A stretch of DNA of 64,000 bases from Flammula alnicola. Its lineage: Eukaryota > Basidiomycota > Agaricomycetes > Agaricales > Strophariaceae. This document shows, in pieces, positions 5,574-26,269 of the stretch; position 1 is the first letter of the stretch; each line of letters begins with the position of its first letter. Made by a program: the position numbers and the translations under genes. The DNA is taken from positions 1 through 64,000 of the forward strand of contig JADNRV010000007.1 of NCBI GenBank assembly GCA_015499995.1. Direction: 5' to 3'. Below the pieces are notes generated by a model that was given only the letters and a program-made list of their open reading frames with translations, ran no database searches and was not told the DNA's origin.

Positions 5574-5693
5574 TATGAGGGACCTCATTGGACAAAATTC
5601 AAAATCCTTATTTTCCCAAAAACCACTGACAAGACACAAATTTCCATGTTGTATTTCCCTTGAATTTCTTATATCATTGGAAAGTTCTCTCAC

Positions 5694-5855
5694 TTGAATT
5701 CTTAAGTTGCTCAAAGTCCTTAAGTCCCTTAAAATCCTTAAGTTGGTCAAATCCTTAAGTCGCTCAAAATCCTTAAGTCGCTCAAAATCCTTAAGTCGCT
5801 CAAAATCCTTAAGTCGCTCAAAATCCTTAATTCCATTAAAATCCTTAAAAGCATC
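5694..5855 (+). repeat. Left subterminal array of 18-bp units
   Basis: About nine units of an 18-bp repeat occur here, four of them identical (AAATCCTTAAGTCGCTCA, 5749-5820) and flanked by degenerate copies. The array begins roughly 120 bp inside the left end of the element. Because 18 is a multiple of three, it opens artefactual frames on both strands. Read from the end inward, the unit matches that of the right array. A role as transposase-binding sites is inferred. Confidence 0.92.
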
Positions 5856-6056
5856 AAAAAGTGCAAATCCCAAATCTCGCAACAGCTATCACTAAATTCA
5901 CATCACCTGACCAAAACACGGTATGTTCAAAAATATGATCAGACAGGATTCCCAACTCCCACTTATGGAGGGCCATCAGCATGGTCCAAGCGCCTTCAAC
6001 TTTTTTTTCTTCATCTCTTTTCACTTCACTTTCTCTATTTATTTTATATGGCCAGC

Positions 6057-9000
6057 ATGAGCTCGACAACTGCCCCCACCGCAGCGATTACTGAAACACC
6101 CTGTGTTCGCTGTCAGGAACCGGGGTGTGGCTTCTTCACGGAGCGCATGAATGTGAGCATTTTTTAATGCGCAATTGGCTCTTCTCATTTTGTTCTCTCT
6201 CAGGGCACCTGTTATTGTGGTCATTCCCAGGCAGACCACCAACACAGAGTAACAGTTTTTCCGCCTAGGGGAGGCTGTCTACAGACACGCTGCACCCGCT
6301 TTGCTGTTGTTGGTGTCGAAAGACAGGTATGTTTTAAGTGGTTGAGAGTCGTTGATCTGATATTCAAGTAAACAATCTAGATTACCAGTTTTCATGAGAG
6401 GTGCAACTGTAGTGCAGCTTACAGTCAACACTACCCTCTCCAAGCCTCTACCAGTCGGAAGTAAGTTTGCGAAATTGAATTGTTGAGAGGGGTTCTGATT
6501 TATTTTTCTTTCAGTAGCGTGAATCAAATGGCAGCGCCACCTGCAACCCAGCCAGTTCTGGTATCGCTGCCTACCCCAGTCCTTACTCAGCCTGCACCCA
6601 CAATGCCAACAATTACTCCCTATCAGCCGAGAACGGCCACACCCAGCCAGAGCACACCCTTCGGTGTTCCTATGTCACAGCCTCAGGGTCAAGCTGGAAG
6701 CTCGCGTCAACCTAGAGCAAGAACCAGGACCAATCAAGAGCCTGCGGCGATGCGCAACAGACGTCTGGCATTAAAAATAATGATCGTTCTTTTTCCCCGC
6801 GATGTGAGTTGGAAATATTATAGTCTCATTCTTAAGCTGACCGAAATTCTTTTTAGCTCAATGGTTCTAATCAAGATGATCATGGCCTCCCAAACATCAG
6901 TCGCCTTAAAACAGGAGAGCAACATAATCTTGATCTCCAATTTCTTGTTGAACAAGGTCTTGCTACTACCGTCGAACTTACCGCCCAACGTGCCGACCAT
7001 ACCCTATTACCCCAAATTCAACAACATTTTGACAGCATGATCGCCAGGGCTGATTATCAATACCCGACCATCCACCTCGCCGACATGGATTTGGCACCGA
7101 CAGCAGAATGCAGAGAGTCCAGACTTGCATTCTCAAAAATGATCTTCCGCCTTCTCAAAGTCGGCAATCTTTGCGGAACAGGACCTGCACTCACAGTTGA
7201 CAAAACTGTTACTCACAGTTCCTTTACCTATGAGGCGCTAAAGACACGCTTTCACCGCCCAGTTATGAAGCACCCGATGGATACCTCTATTCAAGGAATC
7301 CTTTATGTTTGTGAGTTTCTAATCTTTATTCATACGTCGTCAGTCATGATTCTAAATTGACCATTGACAGCGCCAAGGAGGAAATTGCAACTCGTTGGTC
7401 CTGTCGATGAGAACAAGGACGTGATGCATCATTGCTATACGGACTTTATCCTAGCACATCTGGAAAAATCTACATACCAGGTGGATCTTGACGATGAAAT
7501 CGCAGCACTCTCGCCAGAAGAACGTGAACAGACTTGGAGAAGCGAGTACCCACATCCCTGCCGCACTACCTGTCCTCGCTCTGTCCAATCTAATGTATGG
7601 CGTGAAGAAGATGGAGTGAGCGATGACGACGATCGTGATATCGAGGGTTCATTTTTGATGGGCCTGGCTCAACGGCCTTTGCGAATTCCCCCATCTGCAT
7701 CTTCATTGACAACACTCTCTCCTCTGTTCGGAAATTTGGACGTTGGACCTGCACCCATGAATCAAAACCCACCGAGTCCAACATTGCCACCAACATTGCT
7801 GCCAACATCGGTCCCCTTTGGACCTCCACTTGCTCCTCTCCCTCAATCTGCTGGTGACGCTCACCCTGACAAACCTGTTGAATATCAGCCTTCAGACGGG
7901 CCTCCTGAATGGATGAATTTTCAGTTCTTTGAGGCGGCAATCCATCGCACACGCATGCCCATCATTCTTGACACCGACGAAGCCTTTTGCGTCTCTGCAA
8001 ACTCGGTCACTGCAGCTGCAGTGGGCTTGGTGAATGCCATCAAGGGCGTTAGACAAGACAAAAACGCAAGACTAGTTACTTCAATTGTAGATATTGCCGA
8101 CCGTACTCCAGATTTTACTGCAATCGAGCCAGTAGAAGTTGAACTCTCAAACATGTTCTCCTGGTGTCATTGGATATTCCGAGCGTAAGGATGCTTTTTA
8201 CTCCCACTTGTCTATAGTTGACCTCATTTTATTTTCGCTTTAGTGGAGACCCAAATGATGATGATAACATCGGAAGTGCGGTCATGCGTGAGGTCCTCGC
8301 AGAGGCTCTTGTATTCTGCCAGAGTGCAGAAAATGATATAGTGGAACACTTGGGAAATTCTGACGATTATGTCGGTCTCAAGATATCTGCTGATGGTATT
8401 GTCCAGCAGGATACCCTGGACCTTTACTATGCTTTTGGTGCATTATGTGCTATCTTCATGATCAAAACACATGCCGCCCCAGAACCTTTCTCTCCTGCGT
8501 TTATTCTGGCTGCTCTCCGAGGCATTGATTCCATTCTTGAACCAGCCTGGATCGCATCTATATCCCCAGCAGTCTCCAAGATTCTCTCTTTGCTGCCTGC
8601 CAATCCTGAAGAGCCAATACCCAATGATCGTGCCTTGCGTGGCTTCGTTGAAGCCAACCTTGTAAACTCCAGAGTACGTTCATTACTCTTTTACTAAACT
8701 TCCTTTTTTTAACAAAATTTCCCAGTTCGAATCCATACAAAGAAGTCCTCCAGAGCAAAGGGCTCAAATTATCCGCATGCTTACCATCAATGCCCTCCTA
8801 GGGTCTTCGGAAAGGGTTGTTACTTCGTCCCCAGAATTTGCTGCCTTCTCTGCAGGTTTGGATCTATACTTAACTCCAAGCTTTCCTTCGTTTAAAGAGG
8901 TGCGTTCAATTTCAAAGTATGAGTTTCAAACGCCTGATAAGACCCTAGGCAATCAGTTCTTCTTCAAAGTACCTCCTCTCGCAGTGCTATAATCGCCGTA

Positions 9001-9627
9001 TTACATCTGGCGAACAAGTCATCCCCCACCTGCACTTTTCGTACCATAGATCTGCGACACCGGACATCATTCAGAGCGCCCAACATCTAATTCCACAAAT
9101 TACTGCTGCCGTCAAACGCTACTTGCTGGGTAAAGGCCATCCCTTCCCTGATCGTGTCCATGGCCTCGCAAATCCAGATACCATTGGACAGGAAATGACC
9201 GATTCAGGTTTCAGGGCTCGGAGATTTGTCAAGGTTCTCAGCGGACTGGACATGATGCCCGTTGCTGACAAGCGATTCCAGGTCAGTCTTACAAACTTAA
9301 AACACTACTCTGTCCAATATCTGATGCACAGTTGCCTTAGGTGTCGCTTTATGAAGACATACGTGAAAAGGCACTCTTTAATGGAGAGTACAATGTGCGT
9401 TTTTTCCCCTTGTTCAAAACTAAGTTGCCTAACTTGAGATTCAGGCCACTACTGACTTCGTCCCACCTTTGCCCCACGCTTGCCTATACGACATTGACGT
9501 ATGGGTTAACCAACCCCTCATTGACGCCCTCGCAACAGCTGATGCTCCTCTTGGCGTGGACACGGAATTTGACTGGGCCCTCCATCTTGGAATAATGAAA
9601 ATGGGAAACGATGGATTCAACGCATAA
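6057..9627 (+). CDS. Large unidentified cargo protein with N-terminal Cys/His cluster
   Basis: I do not recognise this family. The gene has about ten introns with good GT-AG signals (for example 6151-6201, 6804-6855, 7310-7370, 8186-8243) and ends at a TAA at 9625-9627, giving roughly 950-1000 residues. The first 120 residues hold a Cys/His cluster: CVRCQEPGCGFF, then CYCGHSQADH, then C-x4-C and CNC, which resembles a zinc-binding module. A Pro/Thr/Gln-rich linker follows with a basic patch (RQPRARTRTNQEP). A large globular region contains YQYPTIHLADMDL, SFLMGLAQRPLRIP, WCHWIFRAGDPNDDDNIG and HLHFSYHRSATPDI. There is no membrane segment or recombinase motif. It is the first gene inside the left end of the element, reads inward, and shows no disabling mutation. 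Confidence 0.78.
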
Positions 9628-10149
9628 ACATCAGCCCATCCCACACGACACTGTTCTGACTCAAAACCTCAAGTCTGTTTTCACCTGCACAGCCTGTACC
9701 GCAAACACGAACTCCAGAATTTCAACCTGCATAATGGACTTTTTCTGACTCATCGCTCCATGTAGACTCTTTTCCACCAGCTGCAAACTTCTTTCGCCAT
9801 GTATACATTATCCGAATGCTCAATGCTCATGCTCATGTACTCCCAGATATCATAACTGCTCAAGGGCACTTTAAAAAGCCACGTAGATTTCACTGTATAT
9901 TTTTGCACGATTGCTGTATCCTCAAAAGCTTTGTATTTATTCACAACCAATATTACTCCTGACACTCTTTATTCTATGTACTGAAGTACAAATCCAAATT
10001 ATAGCCGCACCACCAACAACAGGCGTATTTTCACAGCCTGATAGTCACGTCGGAAATCCGAGGAGAAGGAACACGATTGGCGGTGTTCGTAGGCTGTCAT
10101 GGCGCCTCCTGGTGTCGGCATCGGTGGCTTACGCTTGGAGGGCGGCAAA
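9628..10149. other. Spacer after the large cargo gene
   Basis: This is a convergent spacer between the large cargo gene and the kinesin relic. It presumably holds a 3' untranslated region. No gene is recognised. Confidence 0.4.
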
Positions 10150-11330
10150 GCCATTCTGAGACCCAGAGAATCGAATTTGGAGACGAAGGCTAGAGCGCCG
10201 TTCTTCCTCGAGTGTCTGCTTCGCCTGCAAAAAATCAACGTCTCAGTAAAATCCGAGTAGTTCATATGTGATCCAACGACAAACCTTCTTCTCCTTCTCC
10301 AAAGCCTTGGCGACTTCCTCTGCCCATCGTTCGCTCTTCTCGCTCTTCTTCTTCTCCTCCTCGAGCTTCTCAGACTACTCCTTCACCACATCCTCTTTAA
10401 CCTTCCTCAATGGCTTGCCCAAGTTCTCCTCGTACCCACCCACCGCAATTTCAAGCTCGCAAATGGTCTTCGTCTGCTCAGCAATCAACATGTCCTTCTC
10501 ATCCGATGATGCATCCGCGGGCAAGGGTGGTCGGGCAAGCTGCAGGCGCGCAGCGAGGAGCTCTTGTTGCAGCTGATATGGCGACATTTCAAAGTGGATC
10601 TTGACCGGCCTGACAGGCCTGCTCTCGCTGTCGCCTTCCTTGCTCTCATCCACTGCGGCGCTGGTAAGGATGAGCTTCGTCGATCGCGCATCGCTTTGGA
10701 TTCGTCGATTTGCTGGAGATGACAACAATGAGCATTTTCAGAAACAGGATATTCAACAGGCAGACGAGAGATTTTACCTCGCGTGGAGAGTCGACGAGAT
10801 CGGGCAGGCACTTCAGCCTCGCGTTCTGTGAGTCGGGCTTTCAATTCCTCGATCTCTTTGCGGTATCGTTCAATAAGGGCATCAGTGTCGACCACCTCTT
10901 TCTTCTGGGCATGGAGCTATTCGCAGGCAAGGGTCAGCCTTCTACTCTTTGGAGGAAGAAACCAGAAGAAAAGAAAGAACCAGACATACTTGTACGCTCT
11001 TGATCCTCTTCGCGAAGAGTAACGTGCTCATACTTTCAGAAACAGCAGCGTCAGGATTAATTGTGCAAATCACACTAATACGTGCGTTGCCTGAGAGCGA
11101 AGGCTGCAGCATGCGCGTCAGCTCGAGTTGCGGTAGGGTACGTGGTCTGATTTCTTGTTGTCTGCTAATGTGCCGATTGTCGTTCCGACTGCGAGCAAGC
11201 TGTTAAAGAATTTAAAAAAGTGAGTTGATCTGGTGAAAATATTTGTTGATGATATTACCAACCTTGTATTGATATATTTTCCTTCTCGCTTTTTCTGAAC
11301 CAGCAAGATCGATCAGACTCTGGAAGAAAC
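10150..11330 (-). pseudogene. Kinesin motor-end and coiled-coil fragment (decayed)
   Basis: Minus-strand pieces match the end of a kinesin motor and its neck: SLIDLAGSEKA, then REGKYINT, then IGTLADNKKSDHVPYRNSSL, then LTRMLQPSLSGNARISVICT and STLLFAKRIKSVQV. The coil follows: ALIERYRKEIEELKARLTER and KTICELEIAVGGYEENLGKP. The pattern resembles kinesin-7/CENP-E-like fungal motors. Two faults show decay: the SEKA and REGKYINT segments are in different frames with intervening residues missing, and a TAG interrupts the coil between VKE and SEKLEEEKK (near 10375). I could not find the P-loop half of the motor. It lies antisense to the element's intact genes. Confidence 0.75.
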
Positions 11331-13978
11331 TCGTTAAAATGACTCCTGCATCAAGTTATTATGGAGACTTACAAGGACAGAAGTCTGTACGCTTTGTCCT
11401 CCCTCTTGCCTGTAACCTTGACCCAGCTAACCCAGGTGTCTGCCTGCCCGTTAAGTCCTGGTGTTCGACTTCCTCTCGCAGCGGGTGAGGATAACATCGC
11501 CGCCAGCACCGCCTTGAATACAGCACCGCCTTGAATATGAACTGGAGTCGCCTCTAGAGAAGTCGGGGTCGAGTTTGAGTGGCTTGGTGGAAGGGTTGGG
11601 AATCCATGCTGAAGTCGAATCTGTAGGCCGTATACTGCAGTAAAAAAGTAAGTGCTCATGCCATTAAATGGGAAGGCAATTTAATAATTACTGAATAGAT
11701 ACCATAACATTGTCCTCCTTGCCATGGTCGAGCTCAGCAGCTCTCAACCAGGCCTCATCAATCTCGCCGCTCATATCTCCGGGTTCAACTGTCTGGAAAT
11801 CTACAAGAACTTGCTCCGGATCGACGTTGCTCACATCAAAGACAGGCTTTCCGCGCCGCGTCTACTCCTTGGCTTATTCGCAGTTCTTGGACGACTCCGC
11901 GGACTCCGCGAGCCATCTTTCTTTGTTGGCGTGCCAGGTACTGGGGCTAGTGTCAACTTGGGCTTAATAACGAGGCCACGACGTTGGGCTTATGCGAGAG
12001 GATCTCAATGCCTATGACCTGTGATGACCAAACTTCGTCAGATCATAAAGAGAAGGGAAAAAATCTGCCTGCGTAGCTTGCCTTGCCATAGGTCAAACCC
12101 CAGGCCATAGCAGTGGGACATTCAGTAATATCAGTGGGATGAGTGCAACCTCCGCAAGTCCACCAGCACCTTGAAGTGTTGGCAGGTGGTGGTGGCCGCC
12201 GTTGAACGACAGCAGTCGCGGTCGCGAGAGTAAAGGCCGGGATAGTAAGCAATAGGTAGCCGTAGCTGCAAAAGCGCGGTTGAACTGTGAGTACTGAGTG
12301 TTGAAGCGACACTCTTGGACACACGACATAGCCCTGAGAGCTCGTGGCCTCTTCCTTGTCGACGTCAATATGCACAGGCCCGGACGTAGAGAGATGCATG
12401 CGAGGTCTGTCACTTTTGTGGTTTGGGTTGCAGAGAGGAGCATGGATTGGCGTGTTGAGAGAATTCTTGTAGTATTTCCGGAACGCTGCTAGATTAGGGA
12501 TGATGTTATTTGGCATGAGCCTTACATTTTCTAGATCAAGCTGAGCTTGAATTTCAAGTGATTCCTTCACGGTCTCTCGATAATCTACGATGTTGCTAAT
12601 ATGTTTTGCGAGAGGTTTTGCCCATGTTCCTCCATAACTATAGTCTCGGAATTGTACGGTGAGCACTTATATTCCTCTCAGTTTTTATTGTGTTTGACAT
12701 TGTTGTTTTCAGATGTCCTTGGCAGACATTGCTGGTCCTTTCACCTGACTCTTTCCAGCTTGCAACGCCTCTGCTTTGCGCCGTGTGCCCCTCCCCTCAT
12801 CTGAGGGATGTGGAGCCGGTGTTGTCGACTACGATGGATTGCAGGGGCTCCGTGGAGCTGCAAGGGGAGACCCACGAATTGGGAGACCCGCAAGGTACGT
12901 AGACAGCTTCGTATCCTCGTCGTCCATCTATGTTTACATCACCGACCTCGGAATCCCTGTCGAAATCGAACGACCTGCCACAAGTAGCAACTGAAGTGGC
13001 GAATACGTCGACGCGTAGCTCATGGATGTGAATGAGAGCCCCAAAGGCTCAAGAGGGAAAGAGAGCGACACGAGCTCCTCTCTCCGGTTAGTGCACGACA
13101 GACAACTGCAGCGTTAGCGCCCACACCTATGTCAGTCGATACAACAGCCTCCACATCGTCCGTCCCACCTCCACCTCCACTTAATGCTAATGCTGGGCCG
13201 AGCAGTAATTGAAGCGGCACCGACTTTCCCAGTAACAGACATCCTCCCCTCCATCCCGTAACGGAAGCTCAAGCAGCCTCAGATCTACCCGCACTATGAC
13301 CCATACAGCATGGATTCGACATGGGCTCAATCCACCGATGCCTACAACAGGTGGCAGTGCATGCGCTCCCAACTGGAACGGGATGGAGTTGACGCGTTTA
13401 CAGACGACTTTAGCTTGATGGGCCTGCCCTGGCAACATCGTCGCATTTCCCACACAGTCGCACTGCCAGTCTGGCAGCGAACGTTTTCGCTTCGCAGGGA
13501 TTGTCGAGCGGGACAGGCATGTCGCCGCCCATTTATCGCGATGGGTTTGTTCACCTTTTCGTTCGCCTTACACCACCTTATATATGTCTTTTCTAGCTCC
13601 CAGCATATCCTCAAGAACTTAAACACCATCTGACGTACTATGGCGCCGCGGTAGCAAATGGCCTAGCCCGCCACCTGTTGCCCTTCTGCATGATGGAATG
13701 GTGGAGGAACATCGCTCGGTACAGTGCTGGCTTGGATGAACAGCCCGACGTGGGGAAGTCGACAGCGTACAGTAGACTCCCCAGAGATAGTGAATATGCA
13801 CATATAATTGAGTGATTTAATGAAGTTCAGAACGTTTACAGCCCTCAGAATCACTCAGATTGAAGCAGATCAAACCAGATTGGACTGAATATACTGTACA
13901 TCTGAAAGGGATCGTCCCAGATTTGACCGGGTTTCTCACACTGGAACCGTTCTCAAACCGTTCTCACTGGGCCTGACA
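11331..13978. other. Unresolved stretch inside the element
   Basis: No intact gene can be supported. On the minus strand two exon-like pieces are visible, one containing KPVFDVSNVDPEQVLVDFQT (about 11700-11870) and one containing DYSYGGTWAKPLAKHISNIV and LENVRLMPNNIIPNLAAF (about 12450-12650). Neither could be assigned to a family. They may be further host gene relics or belong with the kinesin fragment. The upstream exons of the AT-hook-like gene may lie in the right part. Confidence 0.35.
12781..12812. repeat. Dispersed GC-rich hairpin repeat, copy 1
   Basis: The sequence CCGTGTGCCCCTCCCCTC, then AT, then CTGAGGGATGTGG recurs at 21260-21291 with two or three differences. The core TCCCCTCA..TGAGGGA is self-complementary. 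The surrounding sequence differs between the copies, so the 32-bp block itself is the shared unit. Function is unknown. Confidence 0.7.
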
Positions 13979-16011
13979 GCCTCTTGCTCCTCCCTGTCAA
14001 CTTTGCCGACGTTGCCAACATCGCACTTCGCTATGCCCGAGTATCAGGTTGTGAAAGGGTATGAATGCATGATCAACAGGGCTAAAGGTGTACCTCTGCC
14101 AAGGAAAATTTCTCAACGGTTGCTCTGTGAGTGCTCTATTCAATTGTCGCTTATCTATGCTTAACTATTTCGAAGATTCCCTTGAGATTGCTCCTGTAAC
14201 GCATTCCAAGCGTATGGGTACTCTCACTGCAGAGTCTATGGACTTCACCGCTCCTGCTCGTACTGCAAATTGGAGCTATGCGCCCACTCATTGGATTGAT
14301 CGCGCTGACGAGGAAGGATGGGGCTATCTTATGGCGCGGACACCACCATCCCCGTTGATCTGCCGCTCACGTGGAAAGCTCTTGCTCATGGCCGCTGGCC
14401 AGCATGCCATGGTCATTTGCTTTGCTCTTGAAACCAGCATCATAGGCATGTCTGTCAACAACTATCGCCGAATCTTGAGTGCAGATTATCCCGGTCCAAA
14501 CTTCGATGGTTCGAAAGCAGAACATTTACGGACATTTCATATTCCAAATGACCTTGTTGTTGCTAACTCATCCCCTAGCAAACCTCGAACTATGAAAATC
14601 GTCGCAGCCTTTGTTTCCGACAGTTGGGTCTGGACCATCAACGACTGGACTTCATTGGTTCGTTTGTATGTCCTTAGTTCCGACGTACATTGGACTCCGG
14701 ATCTTGTTTCCAAGGTTAGTCTATCTTGCCTTCATTCTTACATGCTGCTATTTGATCAAATAGCATTGGGACACCCTATTTGATCGCTTTAATGGTGGTC
14801 CCGACTGGGTTTTAGAAAAACATTTGGCTATGAGCCGACTAGCAGAATGGAGAAAGTTCATATTGGAGGATGATAAGGGTCGAAAGCGTCAAAAACGAAT
14901 AACAAATTTTTTCAAGTGTGTTTTTCTGTTTAGATCACCATTATTTTTCCTCTTTTATTTAGTGATATCCACAGTAATTCAGCAACAAATCAACCCATGT
15001 CCTACGAGGTATACAAGCCTATTGTCCAAGAACTGCAGGCCAATTCATATGGCTGCTTCGCTGGCATTGGGCGCTATTCCGCTAGCGATCTCCTCCACCT
15101 TCTTTGCTGGTTTCCAGGAACTCCTTCTTATGTCATTTGCTCTGACGACAAACTTTTCAATGAACTTGCGGATGGAATATATCAATATCTATATCAGTTC
15201 ACCCTTAGATCTTTCTTGGACATTGCGTCGTCTGTTCCGAACAGTGACAATCCCTTAACTTTCAATGAATATTGCAATACTGTATACCTCCGGAAGTGGG
15301 TTCTTGTCTATCGAAGATCTATGGCTCAGTTAACACTGGATTTATACAATGACTACGTCTCCAAAGGCTTGATGGATGATGGACACACAGTTGGTATGTT
15401 CTAATTATCCTGATTGTAGCAGATCAGCTGTTCTAATTGAAAGTTTTGAAGGTCTTCCTTACAAAGTTCCATCTGGCCAGTTGCTTGGTTCGAACCGTCG
15501 ACACCAAAGTACCCCCGTGTATTATTATGACAAGCCCCTGTGTGCTTTTACCGTCATTAGAGCCAGACCACCAGAATCATGGGGTTATGTTGGAGAACGT
15601 GTGAGTAATTTTAACTGCTGCACTACTGTTCCTTACGGAGTTTTATCATAGAGTATCGTCGAAGATGATATAAAGCAGTTCCAGTACAAGACAACAATAG
15701 GGATGTCACAGTTTAGAGTTCAGTTGCAGAATCGGCCTGATTATCGGCGAGCTGAACCAGGGGCTGTAATAAATGGAAGGCCGAGGAAGGTAAGTAATAT
15801 AAATATATACTTAAAAATCTGAGTGAAGCTGATGGGCACCTCAAAGTTTCGAACAGGGAAACCAGGGAGACCTTGCGGTGGTATTACCAAGAAGAAAATT
15901 CTGAAATTGAAAGATGTTCAGACAGGGAGGCGACAAAAATTTGAAGAGATTTATATCGACTCTGATGAAGAAGATATGGACGGCGACGAGATGCGAGATG
16001 GATCTGGCTAG
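13979..16011 (+). CDS. Unidentified cargo protein with C-terminal AT-hook-like motifs (5' end not resolved)
   Basis: The first supported exon follows a TGACAG acceptor at 13978 and encodes a Cys-rich stretch, PCQLCRRCQHRTSLCPSIR. The next exons give AKGVPLPRKISQRLLYSLEI, GWGYLMARTPPS and SMSRLAEW-type helical sequence, then NSYGCFAGIGRYSASDLLHL. The C-terminus has two minor-groove-binder-like motifs, NGRPRK and GKPGRPCGG, followed by an acidic tail with a TAG at 16009-16011. The Cys-rich plus AT-hook design suggests a nuclear DNA-binding protein, which is an inference. I do not know the family. No stops or frame breaks are evident in the exons I could join. The true start probably lies upstream. 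Confidence 0.7.
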
Positions 16012-16329
16012 CTATGTACAAGTACTGTGCTAACAATCACTTGAAGTGGAGAATAATTGTCATCAGTTACACTCACTGTCATCAATTCAATGCGCAGATC
16101 TGAGCTCCGCAGTCGACAGCTGCCTCGCCTCCATTATCTTCACGACATATCTATGTGATTCCACGGTCAACACACTTCTATGATGGCCCGGCTACATTCA
16201 TGCCTTTGTCCTTGCAAGACTAACTCTGTCCATCTGGAGAATGCTTCCAGAGTGTGAAATACTACGAGAAACATTTATCTATTGTGTTGCGGAGTATCTT
16301 GGCTGAACCTAAATGCGCAGTCGTACTCC

Positions 16330-17390
16330 AGTTCGACCCGTGGCTGCTCGTCTCCTCACTTCAATTTGTGGAATGTATGATTTTTCTAGATCTTCCCATT
16401 CTTCACGTGTAAAGGACCCAAGGCAAATACTCGAACTGGCCTTGCCGTTGCGCGACTTCCAGCTGATACTTGGCGTCTTCCAATCTCTGCTTGGTTTCCT
16501 TGATCTTCTGCAACCGCGCCCGTTCTGAAAGCAAGAAGAAGAAATCATAAATATACATGTCAAAGGCATGTAGATATTCAGTATGAAGACGCACCAGCTT
16601 GCCACACGGAAGTCAACGCAGACGCTTCCTGCCGTTTCACGAGCAAATCATTTTCGACCTTGGTCCGCCTTTCGACGCTGAACATGTCCGTCTCCTTCTT
16701 CAAACTCTCCAGCTCGATTTGAAACGTCATGATTTCCCGGTCAAGAGCCTCGAGTTCATCAGGTTTAGACTCCTGAGTGAGACGCAGCAGAGCCGAAGCT
16801 GCTTCGTCAACCAGGTCGATGGCTTCATCTGGCAGGTACCGATCTGAGATATAACGTGCAGACTACACAGCAGCTAATTCAAACAAAAGAAATTAGTGAG
16901 ACAAGGGGTCCATTCTCGGCAGTCGTTGTGAAGAAAAGACTAACCTGTGACCAGAGCGCTATCAGCGATGTCGACTCCATGATGAACCTCGTGAGTCGTA
17001 TCTCGATTTCAGACCACGCAAAATTGATATCGTAGACGCGACTGTGGGCTCGTCGATAGTGACAAGTTGGAACCTCCGCTCGAGGGCCCGTCTTTGCAGA
17101 TAGTTTTACGATATTTGTCGGCTGTCGAGTGGGAGGTTGGTTATTAGCATTTGCACAGGTCGGCGCAAGGACGAAGAAACTTACGTGTGGTCGCTCCTAC
17201 TAGTTGGAGGCCCCTCGCTAAGGCAGGCTTGATCATCTGTCCTGCGTCAATGCTGCCCTCTGCTTTGCCCAGGTTGAAGAGTGTGTCTGCGCAACAATGT
17301 TAACAATGTCATCGATGGCATGATGGACCTAGTTAGTACTCACGAACTTCATCTATGAAACAGATGACTTTGCCACTCTGTGGATGGAAG
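16330..17390 (-). pseudogene. Mitochondrial ClpB/Hsp78 fragment (NBD1 end to middle domain, decayed)
   Basis: Minus-strand pieces match the Hsp100 disaggregase in order: the Walker B strand [31 protein letters not shown] then [83 protein letters not shown] and the coiled middle domain (RLQKIKETKQRLEDAKYQLE, then VAQRQGQFE). It is non-functional: KDG and LERRF are out of frame with each other, extra bases break RY from VHHGVD, and both the N-terminus with its Walker A motif and the second ATPase domain are missing. It is antisense to the neighbouring cargo genes. Confidence 0.85.
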
Positions 17391-17706
17391 GACAAGTTTA
17401 TTATATTATAGAACAAACAAAGTTGAAAACACACCAATGGCCACATCGCCGATGCAGTGTAATGGAGTGCGAGTTGAACGTTGAAGACGAAGACATAGAT
17501 ACTTACTAAGAATAGATTTCAATTTGTCTGACTGGAAAAACACGCTCATGTGACCATTTTGTACATACTTCAAAAATTTTCCGACTCTGTTGATCAATCA
17601 TCAACTACTCTGCATTATCGTTCCCAAATCATTCTTCCTCCTTTCTTTCGGTTAGATACAGCTTTAATTTTGGTATGTCCTTAGTGTCATATATTCTTTT
17701 TGTTCT

Positions 17707-17990
17707 CAGTGCAGAAGGCCATGCCTCCGCCATGCTACACCTTTTCCTATACATGAGAAGAGACTGCGCTGATGCAGAAAGTCGCGCCTCGGCTACGCTG
17801 TATCTCTAGCATGGTGCTCTGGATTGTATTTAGGGTTTGGATATCATCTCCTAATAGTTCCAAAATTCTCCTCAGTGCAGAAGGCCATGCTGCACCTTTG
17901 CCCATACATGATAAGAGACTCTGGCTGATGCAGAAAGTCGCGCCTCGGCTACGCTGTATCTCTACCACTGTGCTCTGAAATGTATATAGC
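17707..17990 (+). repeat. Two-copy direct repeat upstream of the dioxygenase gene
   Basis: A segment of about 118-126 bp starting CAGTGCAGAAGGCCATGC is present at 17707 and again at 17873 (period 166 bp). Both copies include the identical run AAAGTCGCGCCTCGGCTACG. The second copy is followed within about 70 bp by the start region of the dioxygenase gene, so the repeat could be part of its promoter. Confidence 0.85.
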
Positions 17991-18055
17991 ACTCAGAAGC
18001 TTTTTATTTCATCGTGTATATCTCCAAAATCTTCTCTAACAGCATCATTGATCCT

Positions 18056-19679
18056 ATGTTTAGTTTCGCCATGTCTATTATCTCCGAGGTAGAGCTTCCT
18101 AACGTCGACAGTGCAGTAAGTCTTTTCTATCTGAAGAGACACGTAGATAAATTGGAGAATTGGTGCAATAACACACTTGTGTTATAGGTACCATCCGAGC
18201 ACATTCATGAAGTCCTTGAAAATGTCGATTGGAATATTCTCTTTGAAACGGCACTACTGTCGGAAGCAGATCCTGGCGCTTGTCAATCTAGCATTTCCGG
18301 TAATTCTAAATTGAACACCACCTCCAAATTCACTTTGGAACCCAATCATAAAACCCATGGGCCTCAATCACACAGGGAGAGTGTCAAAGAGAGGCGAAGG
18401 CAAAAGCGTCTGAATAATTCCGAGAAGCACGAGGCTCGCAAACTCTACTTGAAAGAAAAAAATCATGGAAAAGCAGAACACATATCGCTGGGTGACCTTG
18501 ATATCGCTGAGCTGCCTCATTCAAACCAAGCATATATTGGCCGCCGGGGTGATAGCTACAAACTTGATGAGACGCTGGAAAGCCTGCTGTCCAAAGGATT
18601 TCAATTAATCGAGTCGGATGGGTATGTCATCATATTTTATTTAACGAACTTGGGAATTTACCACTATCAATCTGTAGAAAACCACACTCCTTTGGTGATG
18701 CACATGGCCGTGTCCATGTTGCTTTCGCACCATGCACCAAAGGGATGTCCGATGTCAACAGCGCGCTCATTGAAGACATGAGCACAGCGCAGTCGCAAAT
18801 TGATTTTACAGCCTCCAATGCAACGCAGCCCAAGACTGATGGCTCTGATGAGCCTCGTCGTGGTGATTTCCCAACAATATCAGTTGGGATCTCACATGGA
18901 CAAGGTCAAAGTGTAAGTGGTTCTGTTTCGAGCCCATTCAGCAGAAGCGACATATATTTACATTATCCAACAGTACCCGAAGAATTTGGAGCAGACGGTG
19001 CAAAACCAGAAAGCTTTAGATTCCCTTCTCGGAAGTACTAGCGTCAAACGAGTTGCTATTATGCAAAGCCGTATGTGAATCTCTCCAACCTTATGCAAAT
19101 TCATTAAACAAATCAAATATAGAACTGTATAAATCATGGATGCCACAACTTCATGACGCCTCAGAAGAGCTTTTGGATAAGCTCGAAGCCTGGAAGCCTA
19201 CGCGACCGAAGAGGAATTGGAAACCCATCCATCGTAATTTTCAAGGCAGTGTTTTCGCTGCAACAACCTTTAATTTTGGTCCAGACGTTGTATGCCATGC
19301 CCATCGCGATCACCTCAATTGGGTCATCGGCGGTTGTGCAATCACATCTGGTGGTATTTTTGACTACACAAAAGGAGGCCACCTTGTCCTTATCGACCTG
19401 AAGCTCATTTTCGAATTCCCACCTGGCTCAACCATTATTATCCCATCTGCGATGGTCACCCATGCAAACCTGCCAATTGCACCTCATGAGCACAGAATTT
19501 CTGTGACGCAGTATACAGCAGGGGGTTTATTCCGGTTCGTCGACTATGGATATCGAACTGCGAAGACATTTTTGAAACATGATCGAAAGGGAAAGGGGAA
19601 GAAAGATCGAGAATGTGAGCAGCGCTGGGCAGAACAGCTGAGGATGTATGAGACAAAGGAAGAAAAGCGCAGTGATTAA
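18056..19679 (+). CDS. TET/JBP-like 2-oxoglutarate/Fe(II) dioxygenase (2OGFeDO family)
   Basis: The protein is about 460 residues. After a basic, low-complexity N-terminal half (SVKERRRQKRLNNSEKHEAR) comes a C-terminal double-stranded beta-helix dioxygenase domain. Iron-binding candidates are the HxD motif in CHAHRDHLNWV (about residues 336-338) and the distal His in IPSAMVTHANLP (about 389). The Arg in HEHRISVTQYTAGGLFRF (about 400) suits 2-oxoglutarate binding. The GGHLVLIDL and FEFPPGSTI strands are typical of the agaricomycete group related to TET/JBP enzymes, which oxidise 5-methylcytosine or thymine. Four introns show good signals (for example 18621-18676, 18913-18973). Two in-frame ATGs exist (18056 and 18071). 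All key residues are present. Substrate is inferred. Confidence 0.85.
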
Positions 19680-22600
19680 CAGTCTGTTCAAATATCTTAG
19701 GATAAAGTCTCGATAAAGTCTTGATGTCAGAGAAATGGCAAACAATTTCGACAGGAGCCAGGTATATTATTGATAGACAAAAATTTCAAGGCTACATGTA
19801 AATACAAAATGAACAACGAAGAGACTGGGCACGACATCTCGGAATCGAGAGAAAGCAATATTTCCGTTGGGTACGGGCACTATCTAAAGAGACTATTGTG
19901 ATAATCCTACGAGTCTTAGAGGTCTTTCAAGAGCAAATCCAGGCCCTCCAAAATAGCAGCCCACTTGAGTCAACTTATCCTAACATCATGAGTTACTGCA
20001 AACAGCAGAGCGACGTGGCGGCCAAAGGCTGAAGGGCATAGAGTTCTGTGTCAGAATACAGATTTTGCAGGATGAATAGATACAACATACAAAAATATGG
20101 CGAGCAGATGAGCCCAGCCACCAGGAGCACCATACTTACAACTGAGCAAGTTCATTCTACCTTCCGTGCTGCTCTAGAAAGATAAAATGAGCCTCAATGT
20201 TGAACGAGCTATGTGCAGAGTGAAAACTGTTGACGTACTGAGCATGCCGATGATCTGCATTGGCAGTGATGGCCTCAGTCTTGAGGATCAATCGAAATGG
20301 AAGGGCTTAGACCCGTTAACAGCTCTATTATTACCAGGGTCCAACCTGATCTCTTGACTCGATGCTTCAGTGCTGATGAACGAGAAGTAGTGCTGGCAGG
20401 ACTTACCTAGGGGTCACGATCAACCACATATCTTCCAGCCCATGTTGCCATCATTATCTCTCCTAATAGCAACCATGCGGCTGCTAGGCGTTAGTTCACT
20501 ACATGAAATGTGAATCATGACGGTAAGCTGGAGATAACATTGAACAGGAGGGCGATTACTTACCAGAATTGCATTGAGTAGCTTTGACCGGTCGAAATTT
20601 TTGATTAATGGGGAGTGTCAGTGGCAGCGACATACCACATTGTTGCATCGCGGTCTTGACAGGTCCTTGTACCCGCCATCCCAGACTTGCTTGACAGGGA
20701 AGGGGGCATTCTTGTTAGATGATGAGCATGAAAAGCAGGGCGGCTGGGATTCCGCATCTACCAGTGAAGGTGCAAGTATAAGAGATGCCACTTGACTTCT
20801 GAAAATTCTACCTGGTGCATGAGATGGCGCGAAAAGTTGAATCAGATCACTCCCGGACAGAAAGAATCAACAACCCTTGAACTGTTGTGCGAGGTCTGCG
20901 TGAGGGTAGTTGAGAGGGATAAAGATGACAGTAATTACCTAGCGTCATTGCGTGGGCCCTTTGTCAGCTTGCTGGAGTCCGGCGGTGCTGGTGTGGTACA
21001 AGTTCAAGTTGTCTCCAGCACCGGAGTTGAGAACGTTGAGATTCAATGTTCAACTTTGATCGACAAGGTCACGTGCTTCGGCTACACCACCACAATTCTG
21101 AATTGTCGACGGTCGCTGCCATCCAGCCCCATCCTCGCAACTGTTCTTCACCCCTCCATCGCCTATTTCTACCTCGAATATTTTCAACCAATATTTCTGA
21201 GTGTTAGTTATTAGGTGTCTTCCTACAACTCCTCCGTGTGACTAAAATCGCTCTCGATGCCGTGTGCCCCTCCCCTCGTTGAGGGATGTGGGCTGGCTAT
21301 GGACTGAAATAGGTGAGGCATGAGGGGTAAAAAAATACTTACCAGAGGGAGAGCCAAAACCTGGTACGTAATAATTCGAGTCTTATGACGCCGTTCTCTG
21401 AATTCTCAACCTATCATAGTCAGATGAGACGACAAACAGCTGTCATCTCCCTCGCCCTCCTTTCATGCGCCGCTGCCACTGATCGCTGCCTGCCATGTCT
21501 GTCAACAAATCCCCTCCCTGCGCCTCACCATTCCCTGTGCGCACACATGTTGACGTCTCCTGGCTTGCTCCCCATGACACTTGGGAAATAATGCGAGGAG
21601 ACGACGACTGGCTTGGGGTCATCGTTCAAGCCAATATTGCCATCCTGGGCCTCATTTGCATCAGCTGGCAGTGAGAGCAACTCTGAGCAGGGCGATGCGC
21701 CCAGGGCAAGGATGGTGACCAACAATACTAACCTCGAGAGGCAGCATAGCCATGTCAATCGACATCGGCTCTGCCCTCGCGAGGTTTACTGTTTCTGCTA
21801 AGTGTACAATCGTCAGACCAGAGAAAAATGGATGGTTGATTATGAGACTGGCAATAAGGTATCGTGATCAAGACAGAGTGCGTAGGTTCTTTCTTGTTGT
21901 CTTTGTCCTAGGATTTGACCTGCTGACTAGGCCTTTTGGCTATGGATTTCCGAAGTTTAGGTCGATACTTCGATGCCTAATGCCAATGTCAATGTGAGTT
22001 TACCCTCATTATTTCTTCTTCTCAATTCTCGTTTTCAACGCTTAGTTTATATCACTCCGTCGAACTCGCTAGATAAATCAGTACTCATCTAGAGGCTGCA
22101 CCGTGACCTCAATCTCTGTGCCGTCTATCACGATAACGCCTCCCCCCCATCATGATGTCGATGATAAGGGAGGAGGAAATAACGAGTCTTGTCCTCGCAC
22201 CATATCAATGCCCCTCTAACCATGATACCTAACCTGTTGGGCTGATGGACGGTATCTTATCGAGCATAGCGGCAGACCTCTTGCGGGACGTCTATTCATA
22301 CCCAGTCAAGAACCCAAACTAATCATCTCTCATCACTTTTATCAGCCTAGAAGAACAACAGCTCTCTCTATTTCTCCAGCTGCTCAAATTATCTACCAGC
22401 ATCGCCGTGTACCCTCGAGGGCCAAATCCTTTCTATTCTCATATTCACTCTATATCTGGATTTTTCGTGAGCAATTATAAAGTTTATGACTGTGAACTAC
22501 CTCTGGACAGACTGTAGACTGGGCCTCGTTAAGACAAGTGGTAAGTTTCCTGGAAGTTCTTGGTGTCGTACAAGTCCAACTTTGAACAAATAGAAATCAG

Positions 22601-22812: not shown

Positions 22813-24652
22813 ATGGCACAGGTGCATGCAACTATCCTTACTACTATCGCTGCTGCCTTCAACCACCTCAAAGATGATGTTCACACTGCTCTTCTTACTC
22901 AGCTTGGTGATGCAGCCCAGTTGGAACAGCGAATTCAAGCTTGCTCACGTCTTATGCTGCAAATTAGTCAGGTAAGCCGTATCATTCAAATTTTCCAACT
23001 AGTTCTAACAACCATCCAAGCATGTAAATATTATTCCAGCTGATCAATTTGACATTATTCGAGACAGCATCAGTATGATGATGAAGGACCTCCACGATGC
23101 AAAATTCCTGTCTGCAGATCTCCCCGATGCAGATCCCATTGAACCTGTCACTCTGGAATACACTGGACGACCAGGTCGCCCTCGTGTGGTCATTGATGCC
23201 ACCATTCTGGAAACCTCATACGGGATGAGGGGCCCTACTGAACTTGGCCGTGTTTTCAACGTGAGCTCAAGGCTTGTTCGCCGTCGCGCACTAGAGCTTG
23301 GAATCGTCGAACCTGGCCCACCTGTCTATGTCGAATTTATACAAGAAGACGGATCAGCTATGCGCTACTATTTATCCTCTACTTCATCTCAATCCACTCT
23401 TCCTGACGAGGATCTGGATGCCATCATGATGGACATTCTCAACTCGTTCCCTTCCTTTGGACGGCGCATGATCGATGGTCATCTTAAATTTCTTGGCCAC
23501 CATGTTCCTCGAGCACGCATTCAAGCATCATATGCTCGTGTTCATGGTCCTCCTGTTTCAGCTTTTGGCATTAGGCGCATTGAACGTCGTGTTTACAATG
23601 TACGTGGCTATAATTCTCTATGTCACCACGACGGTCAACATGGTGTGTACATCTTTCATGTTTCTTCACAATTTTGCAACTTCTGATTCTCGTCATAGGT
23701 TTGATTAGGTATAAAATTGTTGTCCATGGTTTTATCGATGGATATTCGCGCTTTGTAACTGGTATCCGCGCTCACAACAACAATCGATCGGAAACTGTAC
23801 TCAAGCTTTTTGAAGAACTTGTCAAGGTTCACGGGCTTCCCAGTCGAGGTCGCGGAGATCATGGAGGTGAAAATGTTCTGGTCGCAGAATACATGGAGAA
23901 TATGAGAGGACCAAACAGGGGTTCTTATATTTGGGGCAGGCAAGTAATCATAATTACACAGTGGTTATAAACGCTAACTAATTCTCAAATCCTTCAGAAG
24001 TGTCCACAATATTCGCATCGAGCGTCTGTGGTTTGATTTCACTTCAGGCGTCGGTGCGAAATGGAAGCTGTTTTTCCAGGAACTCGAATATCAAGCAGGC
24101 CTCGACGTCGACCTTGCCAGCCACATCTGGCTCATTCATCACCTTTTCCTTGATTCCTTGAATCAAGACATCATGGATTGGGCAAATGCCTGGAACAACC
24201 ACAAGATTTCCATTGCTGGCCAGCAACCTGGCGAAGGATCCAGATCTCCTGCAGAGTTACGCTGGTTCAGTATGTTGCAGGATGGAGCGCGAGGATTCAG
24301 TCCCCTAATGGCAAATCAATTTGAGCCCGTCGAAGATGATATCGAACAAAGCAACATTGATGAGTACGGAGTTGACTGGGATGCATACCACGATACACGT
24401 ATTCAAGAGCATCACGCTGAGGCCAACCCCACCGATCCCTTTCCACAGAATCCATTTGTCGCACACCAACCAGAAAGTCTGAGCATGGTGCATGTGGATG
24501 AGTCACGATGTCCGTTCTCAGACGAGGAGCTGGCACTTTTCCAATACAATCTGATGCTGCTTCCAGAGGACATCCGTACTTCGCGAGATATGGTGCATCG
24601 TAAGCAGATGTGGAATTGGGCTCTGAGTCTTTGTAGGGAAATTATGGGATAG
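22813..24652 (+). CDS. Integrase-fold (rve-type) DDE transposase
   Basis: This is the probable transposase of the surrounding element. The four exons are 22813-22971, 23021-23642, 23699-23939 and 23998-24652, about 558 residues. In order they encode an N-terminal helical region, an AT-hook-like GRPGRPRV, a helix-turn-helix-like [20 protein letters not shown], then the integrase core. Acidic residues fit a DDE triad: Asp in [10 protein letters not shown], Asp in [11 protein letters not shown] and Glu in HNIRIERLW, with [15 protein letters not shown] between the first two. The tail is acidic. The third intron begins GCAAGT, a non-canonical GC-AG intron. No disabling mutation is seen. The core belongs to a family common in agaricomycete genomes and distantly like retroviral/IS3 integrases. 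It reads toward the right end, which is 1.6 kb away. Confidence 0.9.
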
Positions 24653-24887
24653 AAATACATATCGTCCTGTCAATGTATCTTACATTTAGAAATGTGTACC
24701 CTTAAGTTCAAGTCGGGTTTCAAAGAACTCATCTTCTGCTCGGACGGAGGTGAATTGGTGGCTACTACCCTACATAGCTATGCAATGAGACAACTGTCCT
24801 ACTCATCACTACATACATCACATGGCGAAAAGAGAAGACAGGAAAACAACGTACATTCACCTGACATAGGGTAAATAGCGACTGTAT

Positions 24888-25430
24888 CTAGATCATGCTT
24901 CCCCGCGTCCATCTTGACAGCACCGCGAAGCCCTGAATGACCTCGTCACTGCCCATGCCGATGATGTCCAAGCTGACCGTGCGCTCTTCTGGTCCAGCGC
25001 AGATAAGCTTGTAAACAGCGGGATCTTTGTGTTCTTCTCGCACCATGGAGTAGAGGGCACGGAACGAGGATTTGTCTGGTTAGAATAAGATTTTAAAAAA
25101 AGTTTTAGAGGCCACGCAAAGAAATAGAACGCACGCGTGTGATCGCCTGTTTGCTCGTGCAGGTTCAAGCTGGTCTTTTCCATCCATGGCATCAGTGTCT
25201 CCTGCAGGACCAGGTCGAAGGTACGGAGGACGGTGGTGCCCTGGATGAGCAGGTGCGTCTCCGTGCTGAGCGCGTGGAAGATCCCTGCGAGCTCTACAGC
25301 GATGTATCACATGCGGATGACCGCCACGCCTTTGGGCTGGTCCTCAAGGTCAAAGAACCCGTGCCAGAGATGCTCCTGGAAAGGAGAAGATGGCCATACA
25401 ACAAGCAAGGAGCTGAAAATGAGAGGTTAA
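24888..25430 (-). pseudogene. Glutathione reductase fragment (decayed)
   Basis: Minus-strand blocks match the NADP-binding and later domains of glutathione reductase: HGFFDLEDQPKGVAVIRM, then a stop, then YIAVELAGIFHALSTETHLL, TVLRTFDLVLQETLMPWMEK, NLHEQTG and, after a gap, VYKLICAGPEERTVSLDIIG then MGSDEVIQGFAVLSRW. The glycine before YIAVELAG in the family is a TGA here, consistent with one base change from GGA. The central part of the protein and the C-terminal catalytic His region are missing. It ends at a TAG at 24888-24890. It lies antisense to and just downstream of the integrase. Confidence 0.82.
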
Positions 25431-25960
25431 CCTGGTTAAGATTATTCAGAAAGTGAAAATATTAATGACATACCTCATGTGTTCATCGCTAAAGCTGCCA
25501 GGCAGCAGCAGCATAGTTTTGAAGGGCCGAACACTAACCATTGTTGCAGCAGAGGAAGGATCTGGGAAACAGGATGTTAAAAGGGTTGCAGAGAGAGAAC
25601 TATGAAGGACATACCTGAGCAATCCCACCCTTTCCGTTCGTTGTCAAAGCATCTGATGACTCGTCGCGGTCCTTGCTTAAATCCTTGTCGAGTGTGAGGT
25701 TGAGCGCCATCCACGCCATGGAGTTTGTGAGCCACAGATTCGATGTGCAGGTTGCAAGTTGGTGAAGGATGATGATCAGACTGCGCAGGAAGGAGATTAA
25801 ATGATGGTGACCTCATAGTGGTAGGACAAGAGGAGGGTTCGTGACAATTCATTGTCAACCTTGAACCTGCAGCTGGCGTCTGGGCCGGATAGAACCCGAT
25901 CCGGAGCCATCAATTGCAGCGACAATAAGTATTACTTACACTGGAAGTTATGTAACGGGA
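25431..25960. other. Spacer between glutathione reductase relic and right array
   Basis: No gene is recognised. Short minus-strand open frames (for example around 25577-25858) may be further upstream pieces of the decayed glutathione reductase gene, but I could not match them. Confidence 0.35.
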
Positions 25961-25964
25961 AGCT

Positions 25965-26195
25965 GGAACTTTGAAGGATATAAGGATTTTCAACAAAATA
26001 AGAATTCTCGAGGGAATAAGGACTTTAAAGAGAATAAGGATTTTCGAGGGACTTAGCCTTTTAGAGGAATAATGATTTTGAAGGGAATTAGGATTTTCAG
26101 CGAGATAAGGATTTCCAGCGAGATAAGGATTTCCAGCGAGATAAGGATTTCCAGCGAGATAAGGATTTCCAGCGAGATAAGGATTTTCAATGAAA
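25965..26195 (-). repeat. Right subterminal array of 18-bp units
   Basis: About twelve units of an 18-bp repeat occur here, four identical (AAGGATTTCCAGCGAGAT, 26107-26178). Reverse-complemented, the unit is ATCTCGCTGGAAATCCTT, sharing AAATCCTTA-x2-TCGCT with the left array in mirror orientation. The array ends about 75 bp from the right terminus. It opens an artefactual minus-strand frame encoding repeated NPYLAG. Confidence 0.92.
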
Positions 26196-26269
26196 TACAA
26201 ATATGTAGCTGACTTGGAATTTTCAGGAAATTTAAGAGTATTGAATATCGTCCAACGGGGGCTCTCATA

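What the first reader, a model, noticed from the sequence alone, without database searches (positions are those of the whole stretch)
5574..26269. 20.7-kb cargo-bearing integrase transposon with defined ends
Borders are fixed by three independent signals: a 6-bp TTCATC duplication, inverted termini TATGAG...TTGGAC (16/20, about 33/44 when extended) and a transporter gene cut exactly at the duplicated codons. Inside are an apparently complete integrase, a TET/JBP-like dioxygenase, two unidentified proteins and host gene relics. Fungal cargo elements described as Starships use a tyrosine recombinase (DUF3435), which I do not see here. IS3EU-type elements, the closest named group I recall, are usually single-gene. 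A large element pairing such an integrase with a base dioxygenase and other cargo may be a new type.
Basis: partly seen in the sequence, partly recalled or inferred. Interest (0 to 1): 0.95.

Follow-up and report, generated by a model that had tools for sequence, protein, structure and literature searches.

The report
Multi-gene IS3EU transposon carrying host fragments
A 20.7-kb jumping gene in a mushroom genome carries its own integrase, an enzyme related to those that erase DNA methylation marks, two unknown proteins and scraps of several host genes, and a matching chromosome site without it is present elsewhere in the assembly.

Summary
The element is exactly 5574-26269 (20,696 bp), flanked by TTCATC. 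A second copy in the same genome (16,720 bp, contig C1) has the same termini and its own 6-bp duplication, ATGGCG. A matching empty site with one TTCATC lies on contig C679. The genome is Flammula alnicola. The integrase is rva_4 (PF24764, 7.3e-56) with DD35E spacing; TA..TA ends and 6-bp duplications point to IS3EU. Four genes are intact in the window. Selection against amino-acid change is clear for the integrase and the two unknown proteins and weak for the dioxygenase. The host relics are a mosaic of fragments from separate loci (kinesin, Hsp104/ClpB-like, others).

It is not a new type: multi-gene IS3EU elements are known (Styx), and IS3EU elements with TET/JBP genes were published for rusts and a truffle in 2025. 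What looks new: a TET/JBP-like IS3EU element in an agaricomycete; a dioxygenase outside the CcTET-like (AG) and HxE (PE) types, whose relatives here often sit beside KDZ transposases; and host-fragment capture, which in C1 occupies the dioxygenase's place. Verdict: real, a new variant of a known kind.

The parts
5568..5573 (.). Target-site duplication, left copy, TTCATC
   Evidence: one TTCATC at the empty site on C679
26270..26275 (.). Target-site duplication, right copy, TTCATC
5574..5617 (+). Left terminal inverted repeat (16/20; 32/44)
   Evidence: same end in the C1 copy and a diverged one on C104
26226..26269 (-). Right terminal inverted repeat
   Evidence: same end in the C1 copy
5697..5848 (+). 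Left subterminal tandem array, 18-bp unit, about 8.5 copies
   Evidence: inverted match to the right array (78% over 82 bp)
25980..26188 (-). Right subterminal tandem array, 18-bp unit, about 11.7 copies, inverted relative to the left one
6048..9627 (+). G1: 1012-aa unidentified protein with a Cys-rich N-terminus, 11 exons
   Evidence: database protein P0121 (F. alnicola) equals it from residue 4; window vs C1 dN/dS 0.16, p 7.9e-10; only F. alnicola hits (2)
10036..11965 (-). Captured host fragment of a kinesin gene (source locus C479:56968-59621)
   Evidence: 86-87% over the two long stretches; a piece of the source locus has Pfam Kinesin 6e-24
11975..12087 (.). Captured host fragment (matches C335 and C61, 90%)
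12089..12138 (.). Captured host fragment (matches C566 at 96% and C667:240449 at 94%)
14033..16011 (+). G2: 555-aa unidentified protein, 7 exons
   Evidence: window vs C1 dN/dS 0.10, p 6.9e-5
16322..16419 (.). Captured host fragment (matches C834:148061-148158 and C209, 94%)
16421..17423 (-). Captured host fragment of an Hsp104/ClpB-like gene (matches C834:62092-63084 and C405, 92%)
   Evidence: the source locus has Pfam AAA_lid_9 5.4e-20; the gene name is recalled from the sequence
18071..19679 (+). TET/JBP-like 2OG-Fe(II) dioxygenase, 455 aa, 5 exons; H331, D333, H384 and R395 present
   Evidence: 98% identical block at C520; dN/dS 0.32, p 0.035
22813..24652 (+). Integrase/transposase, 558 aa, 4 exons, rva_4 (PF24764), DD35E spacing
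   Evidence: window vs C1 dN/dS 0.07, p 3.7e-12
26276..26446 (-). Interrupted host transporter-like reading frame, upstream part
5184..5567 (-). Interrupted host transporter-like reading frame, downstream part

Best explanation
A cut-and-paste DNA transposon of the IS3EU superfamily. Shown: exact termini, 6-bp target duplication, a second copy with the same ends, an empty site, and an intact rva_4 integrase with DD35E spacing. Inferred: the integrase binds the terminal repeats and the inverted 18-bp subterminal arrays, excises the element and inserts it at staggered cuts 6 bp apart. Shown: two unidentified proteins (G1, G2) evolve under clear purifying selection and the dioxygenase under weak purifying selection, so they probably serve the element. 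Inferred: the TET/JBP-like dioxygenase oxidises methylated bases to relieve silencing of the element, while G1 and G2 help transposition or its regulation. Shown: the space between the genes holds fragments of several separate host loci that abut with gaps of 0-27 bp. Inferred: these were copied in by error-prone gap repair after excision (Pack-type capture). In the C1 copy, pieces 97% and 100% identical to host loci lie where the C520 copy has the dioxygenase, which suggests that the same process removes accessory genes.
For: second complete copy, ATGGCG duplication; terminus statistics; empty site, one TTCATC; rva_4 7.3e-56; rve 4.8e-4, under its cut-off; D257, D314, E350; 35 residues between the last two; dN/dS: G1 0.16, G2 0.10, integrase 0.07 against C1; dioxygenase 0.32 and G1 0.17 against C520; Fisher p for dN<dS: 7.9e-10, 6.9e-5, 3.7e-12, 0.035, 7.9e-9 in that order; third, partial copy on C520 with G1, host fragments and dioxygenase in a row; host fragments and their sources; 4, 5 (subterminal arrays).
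Against: The integrase was not compared with Repbase IS3EU entries; linking rva_4 to IS3EU rests on recall plus the terminal features. The dioxygenase is missing from the C1 copy, and its selection signal is weak (8 amino-acid-changing and 7 silent differences, p 0.035). The C1 G1 carries a single-base gap and may be broken. Gene order differs between copies and that rearrangement is unexplained. Around two other integrase loci whose long flanks I scanned (C656, C99; 2 of 6 other contigs with integrase matches), neither gave TA..TA termini at 14/20 or better with an exact 6-bp repeat.
Confidence: 0.88

Rival explanations
1. The dioxygenase is a passenger: part of another transposon (such as a KDZ element) nested in, or recently captured by, an IS3EU element.
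For: The C1 copy lacks it. Related dioxygenases sit within 10 kb of KDZ transposases at 16 of 40 loci in this genome. TET/JBP genes are reported to move between transposon superfamilies (PMC12730594). Its selection signal is weak (p 0.035).
Against: No KDZ match on C667 or C520. In the window and in C520 the gene lies shortly downstream of the same captured Hsp104/ClpB-like fragment, so the association predates the split of these copies. Coding sequence intact in both. In C1, pieces 97% and 100% identical to host loci follow at the point where C520 departs towards the dioxygenase, which fits secondary loss.
Confidence: 0.25
2. G1, G2 and the dioxygenase are ordinary host genes carried as cargo, as in Starships.
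For: The element demonstrably carries host fragments.
Against: The clear host fragments have source loci elsewhere whose pieces hit Kinesin and AAA_lid_9, while the ORFs I scanned in those window stretches do not. In this genome G1 matches only C667, C1, C520 and the diverged element end on C104, and in the protein search only F. alnicola. The integrase and dioxygenase belong to families that are repeated in the genome.
Confidence: 0.06
3. A Starship or a Polinton/Maverick rather than IS3EU.
For: Large size; Polintons also have 6-bp duplications (PMC10045372, passage read) and an integrase.
Against: No tyrosine recombinase, DNA polymerase B or capsid domain among Pfam hits of the four full proteins or of ten further ORFs; TA..TA termini; rva_4 integrase.
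Confidence: 0.02

Closest known systems
TET+ IS3EU elements of Pucciniales and Tuber indicum (Kojima 2025, PMC12730594; Results and part of Discussion read)
   Same: IS3EU superfamily, 6-bp duplications, TA..TA ends, TIRs over 30 bp (the last two stated there for the Pucciniales elements), and a TET/JBP-type dioxygenase inside the element.
   Different: The Pucciniales elements end in TAYGG..CCRTA, and the paper says all TET+ IS3EU families have the TET gene between the transposase and an oppositely oriented alpha-kinase gene. Here the ends are TATGAG..CTCATA, the four genes run the same way, and no kinase domain was found in the four proteins. Their dioxygenases are PU type (rusts) or PE type (HxE, Tuber); this one is HxD and not CcTET-like. 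In the sections read, the TET+ elements named for Agaricomycotina are Kyakuja, Zisupton, EnSpm, Plavaka and Helitron2, not IS3EU.
Styx of Zymoseptoria (PMC10853768, passages read)
   Same: IS3EU-like transposase, 6-bp duplications, 36-bp TIRs, four ORFs, accessory proteins of unknown role.
   Different: Styx is 7.9 kb and ascomycete; [quoted passage not shown] no dioxygenase or host-gene mosaic is mentioned in the passages read.
Kyakuja/KDZ elements with AG-type TET (CcTET relatives)
   Same: Agaricomycete transposons pairing a transposase with a TET/JBP-superfamily dioxygenase; both dioxygenase families occur in this genome near KDZ.
   Different: Different transposase; the dioxygenase here is a distinct, distantly related family (hhalign 92.5%, E 4.8e-7).
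Pack-type transposons (Pack-MULEs and similar; recalled)
   Same: Host-gene fragments from separate loci abutting inside one element.
   Different: Classic Pack elements are non-autonomous (recalled); here the fragments sit in copies with an intact transposase gene, in an IS3EU element.
Starships (recalled)
   Same: Large fungal element with several genes.
   Different: Starships use a tyrosine recombinase; this element has a DDE integrase, TIRs and a 6-bp duplication.

Membership tests
IS3EU | TA..TA termini | tested here: met
   TATGAG...CTCATA in 2 of 2 complete copies; criterion from PMC10045372, passage read
IS3EU | 6-bp target-site duplication | tested here: met
   TTCATC and ATGGCG in 2 of 2 complete copies; one TTCATC at the empty site
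IS3EU | IS3EU-type DDE integrase | tested here: inconclusive
   rva_4 PF24764 7.3e-56 and DD35E spacing. Equating rva_4 with IS3EU is recalled; no Repbase comparison was possible
IS3EU | No HHCC zinc motif upstream of the core | tested here: met
   Only two Cys (44, 254) before the first catalytic D, 210 residues apart
Pucciniales TET+ IS3EU subgroup | Ends TAYGG..CCRTA; TET gene between transposase and opposing alpha-kinase | tested here: not met
   TATGAG ends; order G1-G2-dioxygenase-integrase on one strand; no kinase hit in the four proteins
AG-type TET (CcTET-like) | Clear sequence relationship to CcTET | tested here: not met
   Profile A3 gives no CcTet hit at E up to 10; control profile A4 gives 1.2e-38
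PE-type TET | HxE in place of HxD | tested here: not met
   H331-R-D333; H and D invariant in 15 of 15 aligned members
PU-type TET | Grouping with Pucciniomycete TET/JBP proteins | not testable with these tools
TET/JBP superfamily | Homology to TET/JBP oxygenases with HxD...H...R | tested here: met
   hhalign to the AG profile 92.5%, E 4.8e-7, aligning HRD, H and R. Of 15 members 5 hit Tet_JBP (best 1.7e-4) and 9 hit 2OG-FeII_Oxy_3 (best 8.7e-4) at E up to 1; the window member hits neither. The link is distant
Starship | DUF3435 tyrosine recombinase | tested here: not met
   No such Pfam hit for the four full proteins or ten further ORFs

The most novel reading that the evidence does not exclude
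A fourth type of transposon-borne TET/JBP-like dioxygenase exists in mushrooms (HxD, not CcTET-like, under the cut-off of Pfam's Tet_JBP model). In one genome it is shared between KDZ elements and an IS3EU element, so base-dioxygenase genes move between these transposon superfamilies in agaricomycetes too. The IS3EU elements that carry it also copy in fragments of separate host genes, and in one copy such fragments have replaced the dioxygenase.
Probability: 0.45. Interest if true: 0.65.

Novelty: new variant of a known kind. Interest (0 to 1): 0.55.

Why it matters
Fungal transposons that carry DNA-base dioxygenases are a natural test of whether mobile DNA erases the methylation that silences it. 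This element adds a superfamily/host combination not mentioned in the parts of the 2025 survey that I read, a dioxygenase family outside that survey's AG and PE types, and an intact copy with an empty counterpart site in the same assembly, so methylation with and without the element could be compared. It also suggests a route by which IS3EU elements gain and lose genes.

Tried and rejected
AlphaFold on G2 homologues (A2, 6 rows) gave mean pLDDT 33, and on the dioxygenase catalytic exon alone 34: both useless, so no fold search was run. Pfam found nothing credible for G1, G2 or the spliced dioxygenase or for ten exon ORFs given singly. A PDB search with G1 gave one chance-level hit (E 1.9), and with the spliced dioxygenase none. 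I suspected a HECT-like C-terminus in G1 by eye; no tool supported it, so it is dropped. TA..TA/6-bp termini around the C656 and C99 integrases: none. A right end for the diverged C104 copy in the 30 kb fetched: one candidate by its duplication, without the terminal motif. The dioxygenase tree (15 rows) joins the window with C520 and C8 (100/100), but deeper forks are weak, so it does not say whether KDZ or IS3EU had the gene first. Earlier reports: one search found 35 papers that hold IS3EU (20 listed, 3 opened), one search found 12 with Kyakuja (1 opened), searches found 1, 2, 1 and 1 (of these only PMC12730594, opened), and searches found none. None of the text I saw describes a TET/JBP-carrying IS3EU element in Agaricomycetes. 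Iyer 2014, which first linked TET/JBP to KDZ, and Repbase were not consulted.
Full report
What is there. The element spans 5574-26269 (20,696 bp). Its ends, TATGAG...CTCATA, are flanked by TTCATC on both sides. The window holds 569,916 pairs of identical 6-mers at all distances; among those at least 1 kb apart this one has the best inverted 20-bp termini: 16/20, with three others at 15/20.

Independent proof. A left-end query found 3 places in the 74.4-Mb assembly: the window, C1 (97%) and C104 (78%). A right-end query found 2: the window and C1 (86%). The C1 matches start and stop at window bases 5574 and 26269. They bound a 16,720-bp element with ATGGCG on both sides. C104 holds a diverged left end followed by the first part of G1. 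The joined host flanks match C679:73313-73812 over all 500 bases at 98%, and the 321 bases read there contain one TTCATC. Several host loci occur twice in this assembly, so C679 is probably the other haplotype; paralogy was not excluded. The flanks join into a 186-aa open frame with a weak MFS_1 hit.

Host. The protein predicted for G1 is named as Flammula alnicola, on a contig of 679,364 bp, the length of this window's contig C667. Proteins on contigs with the lengths of C520 and C1 carry the same species name.

Genes. Four spliced genes, all on the + strand, were modelled by hand with GT-AG introns and one GC-AG intron. The integrase (558 aa) hits rva_4 at 7.3e-56 and rve at 4.8e-4, the latter under its cut-off. 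Its triad is D257, D314, E350, with 35 residues between the last two. At least 497 proteins match it at E<=0.001 (7,995 candidates scored, best 120 listed; the named ones among these are agaricomycetes as far as I recall the genera). G1 (1012 aa) has 2 hits, both F. alnicola. G2 (555 aa) has 7 hits: F. alnicola 1, Gymnopilus dilepis 4, Psilocybe cubensis 1 and one without a name. These searches see only relatives sharing short exact words. The dioxygenase has 455 aa.

Selection. dN/dS, window against C1: G1 0.16, G2 0.10, integrase 0.07. Window against C520: dioxygenase 0.32, G1 0.17. Fisher tests of dN<dS on codons with single changes give p 7.9e-10, 6.9e-5, 3.7e-12, 0.035 and 7.9e-9 in that order, so the signal is clear for G1, G2 and the integrase and weak for the dioxygenase (8 changing, 7 silent differences). 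Read in the window's frame, none of the 5 partners shows an in-frame stop. Gapped codons were dropped: 1 in G1 of C1 and 75 in G1 of C520, whose start is not on the contig. The gap in C1 is a single base, so that copy of G1 may be broken.

The dioxygenase. Alignment A3 (the window plus 14 of the 22 other loci fetched; near-duplicates and partial ones left out) keeps H, D, the distal H and R in 15 of 15 rows. At E up to 1, 5 of 15 members hit Tet_JBP (best 1.7e-4) and 9 hit 2OG-FeII_Oxy_3 (best 8.7e-4); the window member hits neither. A control profile, A4, from 6 of 11 fetched loci that pass the Tet_JBP cut-off, hits CcTet at 1.2e-38; A3 does not reach CcTet even at E 10. A3 and A4 align by profile comparison at 92.5%, E 4.8e-7. 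It is therefore a TET/JBP-like enzyme outside the CcTET-like AG group. HxD also excludes the PE type as defined in PMC12730594. The PU type could not be tested.

Where its relatives sit. From I took 40 loci of this family, 26 loci of the AG family over the Pfam cut-off and 82 KDZ places; such lists are lower bounds. Within 10 kb of a KDZ place lie 16 of 40 and 16 of 26 respectively; about 0.9 of 40 would be expected by chance. Only the window copy has an integrase match on its contig.

Other copies. C520 is a 24.4-kb contig with a third, partial copy. After a duplicated inverted start it runs G1, kinesin fragment, further host fragments and the Hsp104/ClpB-like fragment, 96.7% identical to C1 over 7,030 bp. 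It then carries a block 98% identical to the window's dioxygenase region over 2,013 bp, followed by long frames that look like retrotransposon gag and pol by eye. No G2 or integrase match was found on it. The C1 copy has G1, G2 and integrase but no dioxygenase. Block order also differs: in the window G2 precedes the Hsp104/ClpB-like fragment, in C1 it follows it. I have no explanation for that.

Host fragments. About 3.2 kb of the window copy matches other loci in the parts I searched, 9700-12138 and 16050-18060: a kinesin gene (10036-11965; Kinesin 6e-24 at the source), two small pieces from other contigs (11975-12087, 12089-12138), a 50-bp repeat (16272-16321), a piece of C834 (16322-16419) and an Hsp104/ClpB-like gene (16421-17423; AAA_lid_9 5.4e-20 at the source). 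Apart from the G2 block, gaps between neighbouring pieces are 24 bp or less. In C1 the run is C834, C834 again, the Hsp104/ClpB-like gene (also on C834, about 85 kb away), C667:240900, C1:1020124 (97%) and C112 (100%), with gaps of 0-27 bp. C520 departs from C1 exactly where the 97% piece begins, and its dioxygenase block starts 122 bp later. This fits replacement of the dioxygenase in C1 by recently captured host DNA. Gap-repair capture is inferred; the mosaic is shown.

Known work. Kojima 2025 (PMC12730594; all Results and part 1 of 2 of the Discussion read, supplements not) reports TET+ IS3EU in seven Pucciniales species and Tuber indicum. For Agaricomycotina it reports TET+ Kyakuja, Zisupton, EnSpm, Plavaka and Helitron2, and says that the AG type shows no transfer between superfamilies (it does report transfer for PE-type genes in Agaricus bisporus). 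Kojima 2023 (PMC10045372, passages read) gives TA..TA ends and usually 6-bp duplications for IS3EU. Styx (PMC10853768, passages read) is a four-ORF IS3EU-like element. The finding is therefore a new variant of a known kind. None of the text I saw describes an IS3EU element with a TET/JBP-like gene in Agaricomycetes; the library is partial and most listed papers were not opened.

Results against the reading. No IS3EU-like termini were found around two other integrase loci (0 of 2). The dioxygenase is absent from one of two complete copies and its selection signal is weak. Both structure predictions failed. The dioxygenase tree is unresolved at depth. The functions of G1 and G2 are unknown; that they serve the element is inferred from selection and from their recurrence in copies.

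Noticed in passing
Own genome: 26 AG-type loci and 40 loci of the window's dioxygenase family: Two separate TET/JBP-superfamily families coexist in this genome, each often beside KDZ transposases (16 of 26 and 16 of 40 within 10 kb).
   Followed up: partly
C520:1-1205 (L014): The contig starts with a 1.2-kb inverted self-match (94%), either an assembly hairpin or a real inverted duplication inside the element copy.
   Followed up: no
window 24893-25306, minus strand: ORF with a marginal Pyr_redox hit (3.9e-4, just under the cut-off), possibly another captured host fragment; the region is shared with the C1 copy.
   Followed up: no
window 19694-22378: About 2.7 kb between dioxygenase and integrase with no match in the C1 or C520 copies and no identified gene; origin unknown.
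   Followed up: no
window 12139-16321 against C1: The G2 block lies before the Hsp104/ClpB-like fragment in the window and after it in C1, same orientation; the mechanism of this rearrangement is unexplained.
   Followed up: partly
C8:137889-139254: A dioxygenase about 70% identical to the window's over its catalytic part, with no KDZ or integrase match on its contig.
   Followed up: no
C104:8519 onward: A diverged left end (78%) with the first part of a G1-like gene, and a short dioxygenase-like match (52 aa, 42%) about 11 kb further on the other strand: remains of an older relative.
   Followed up: partly
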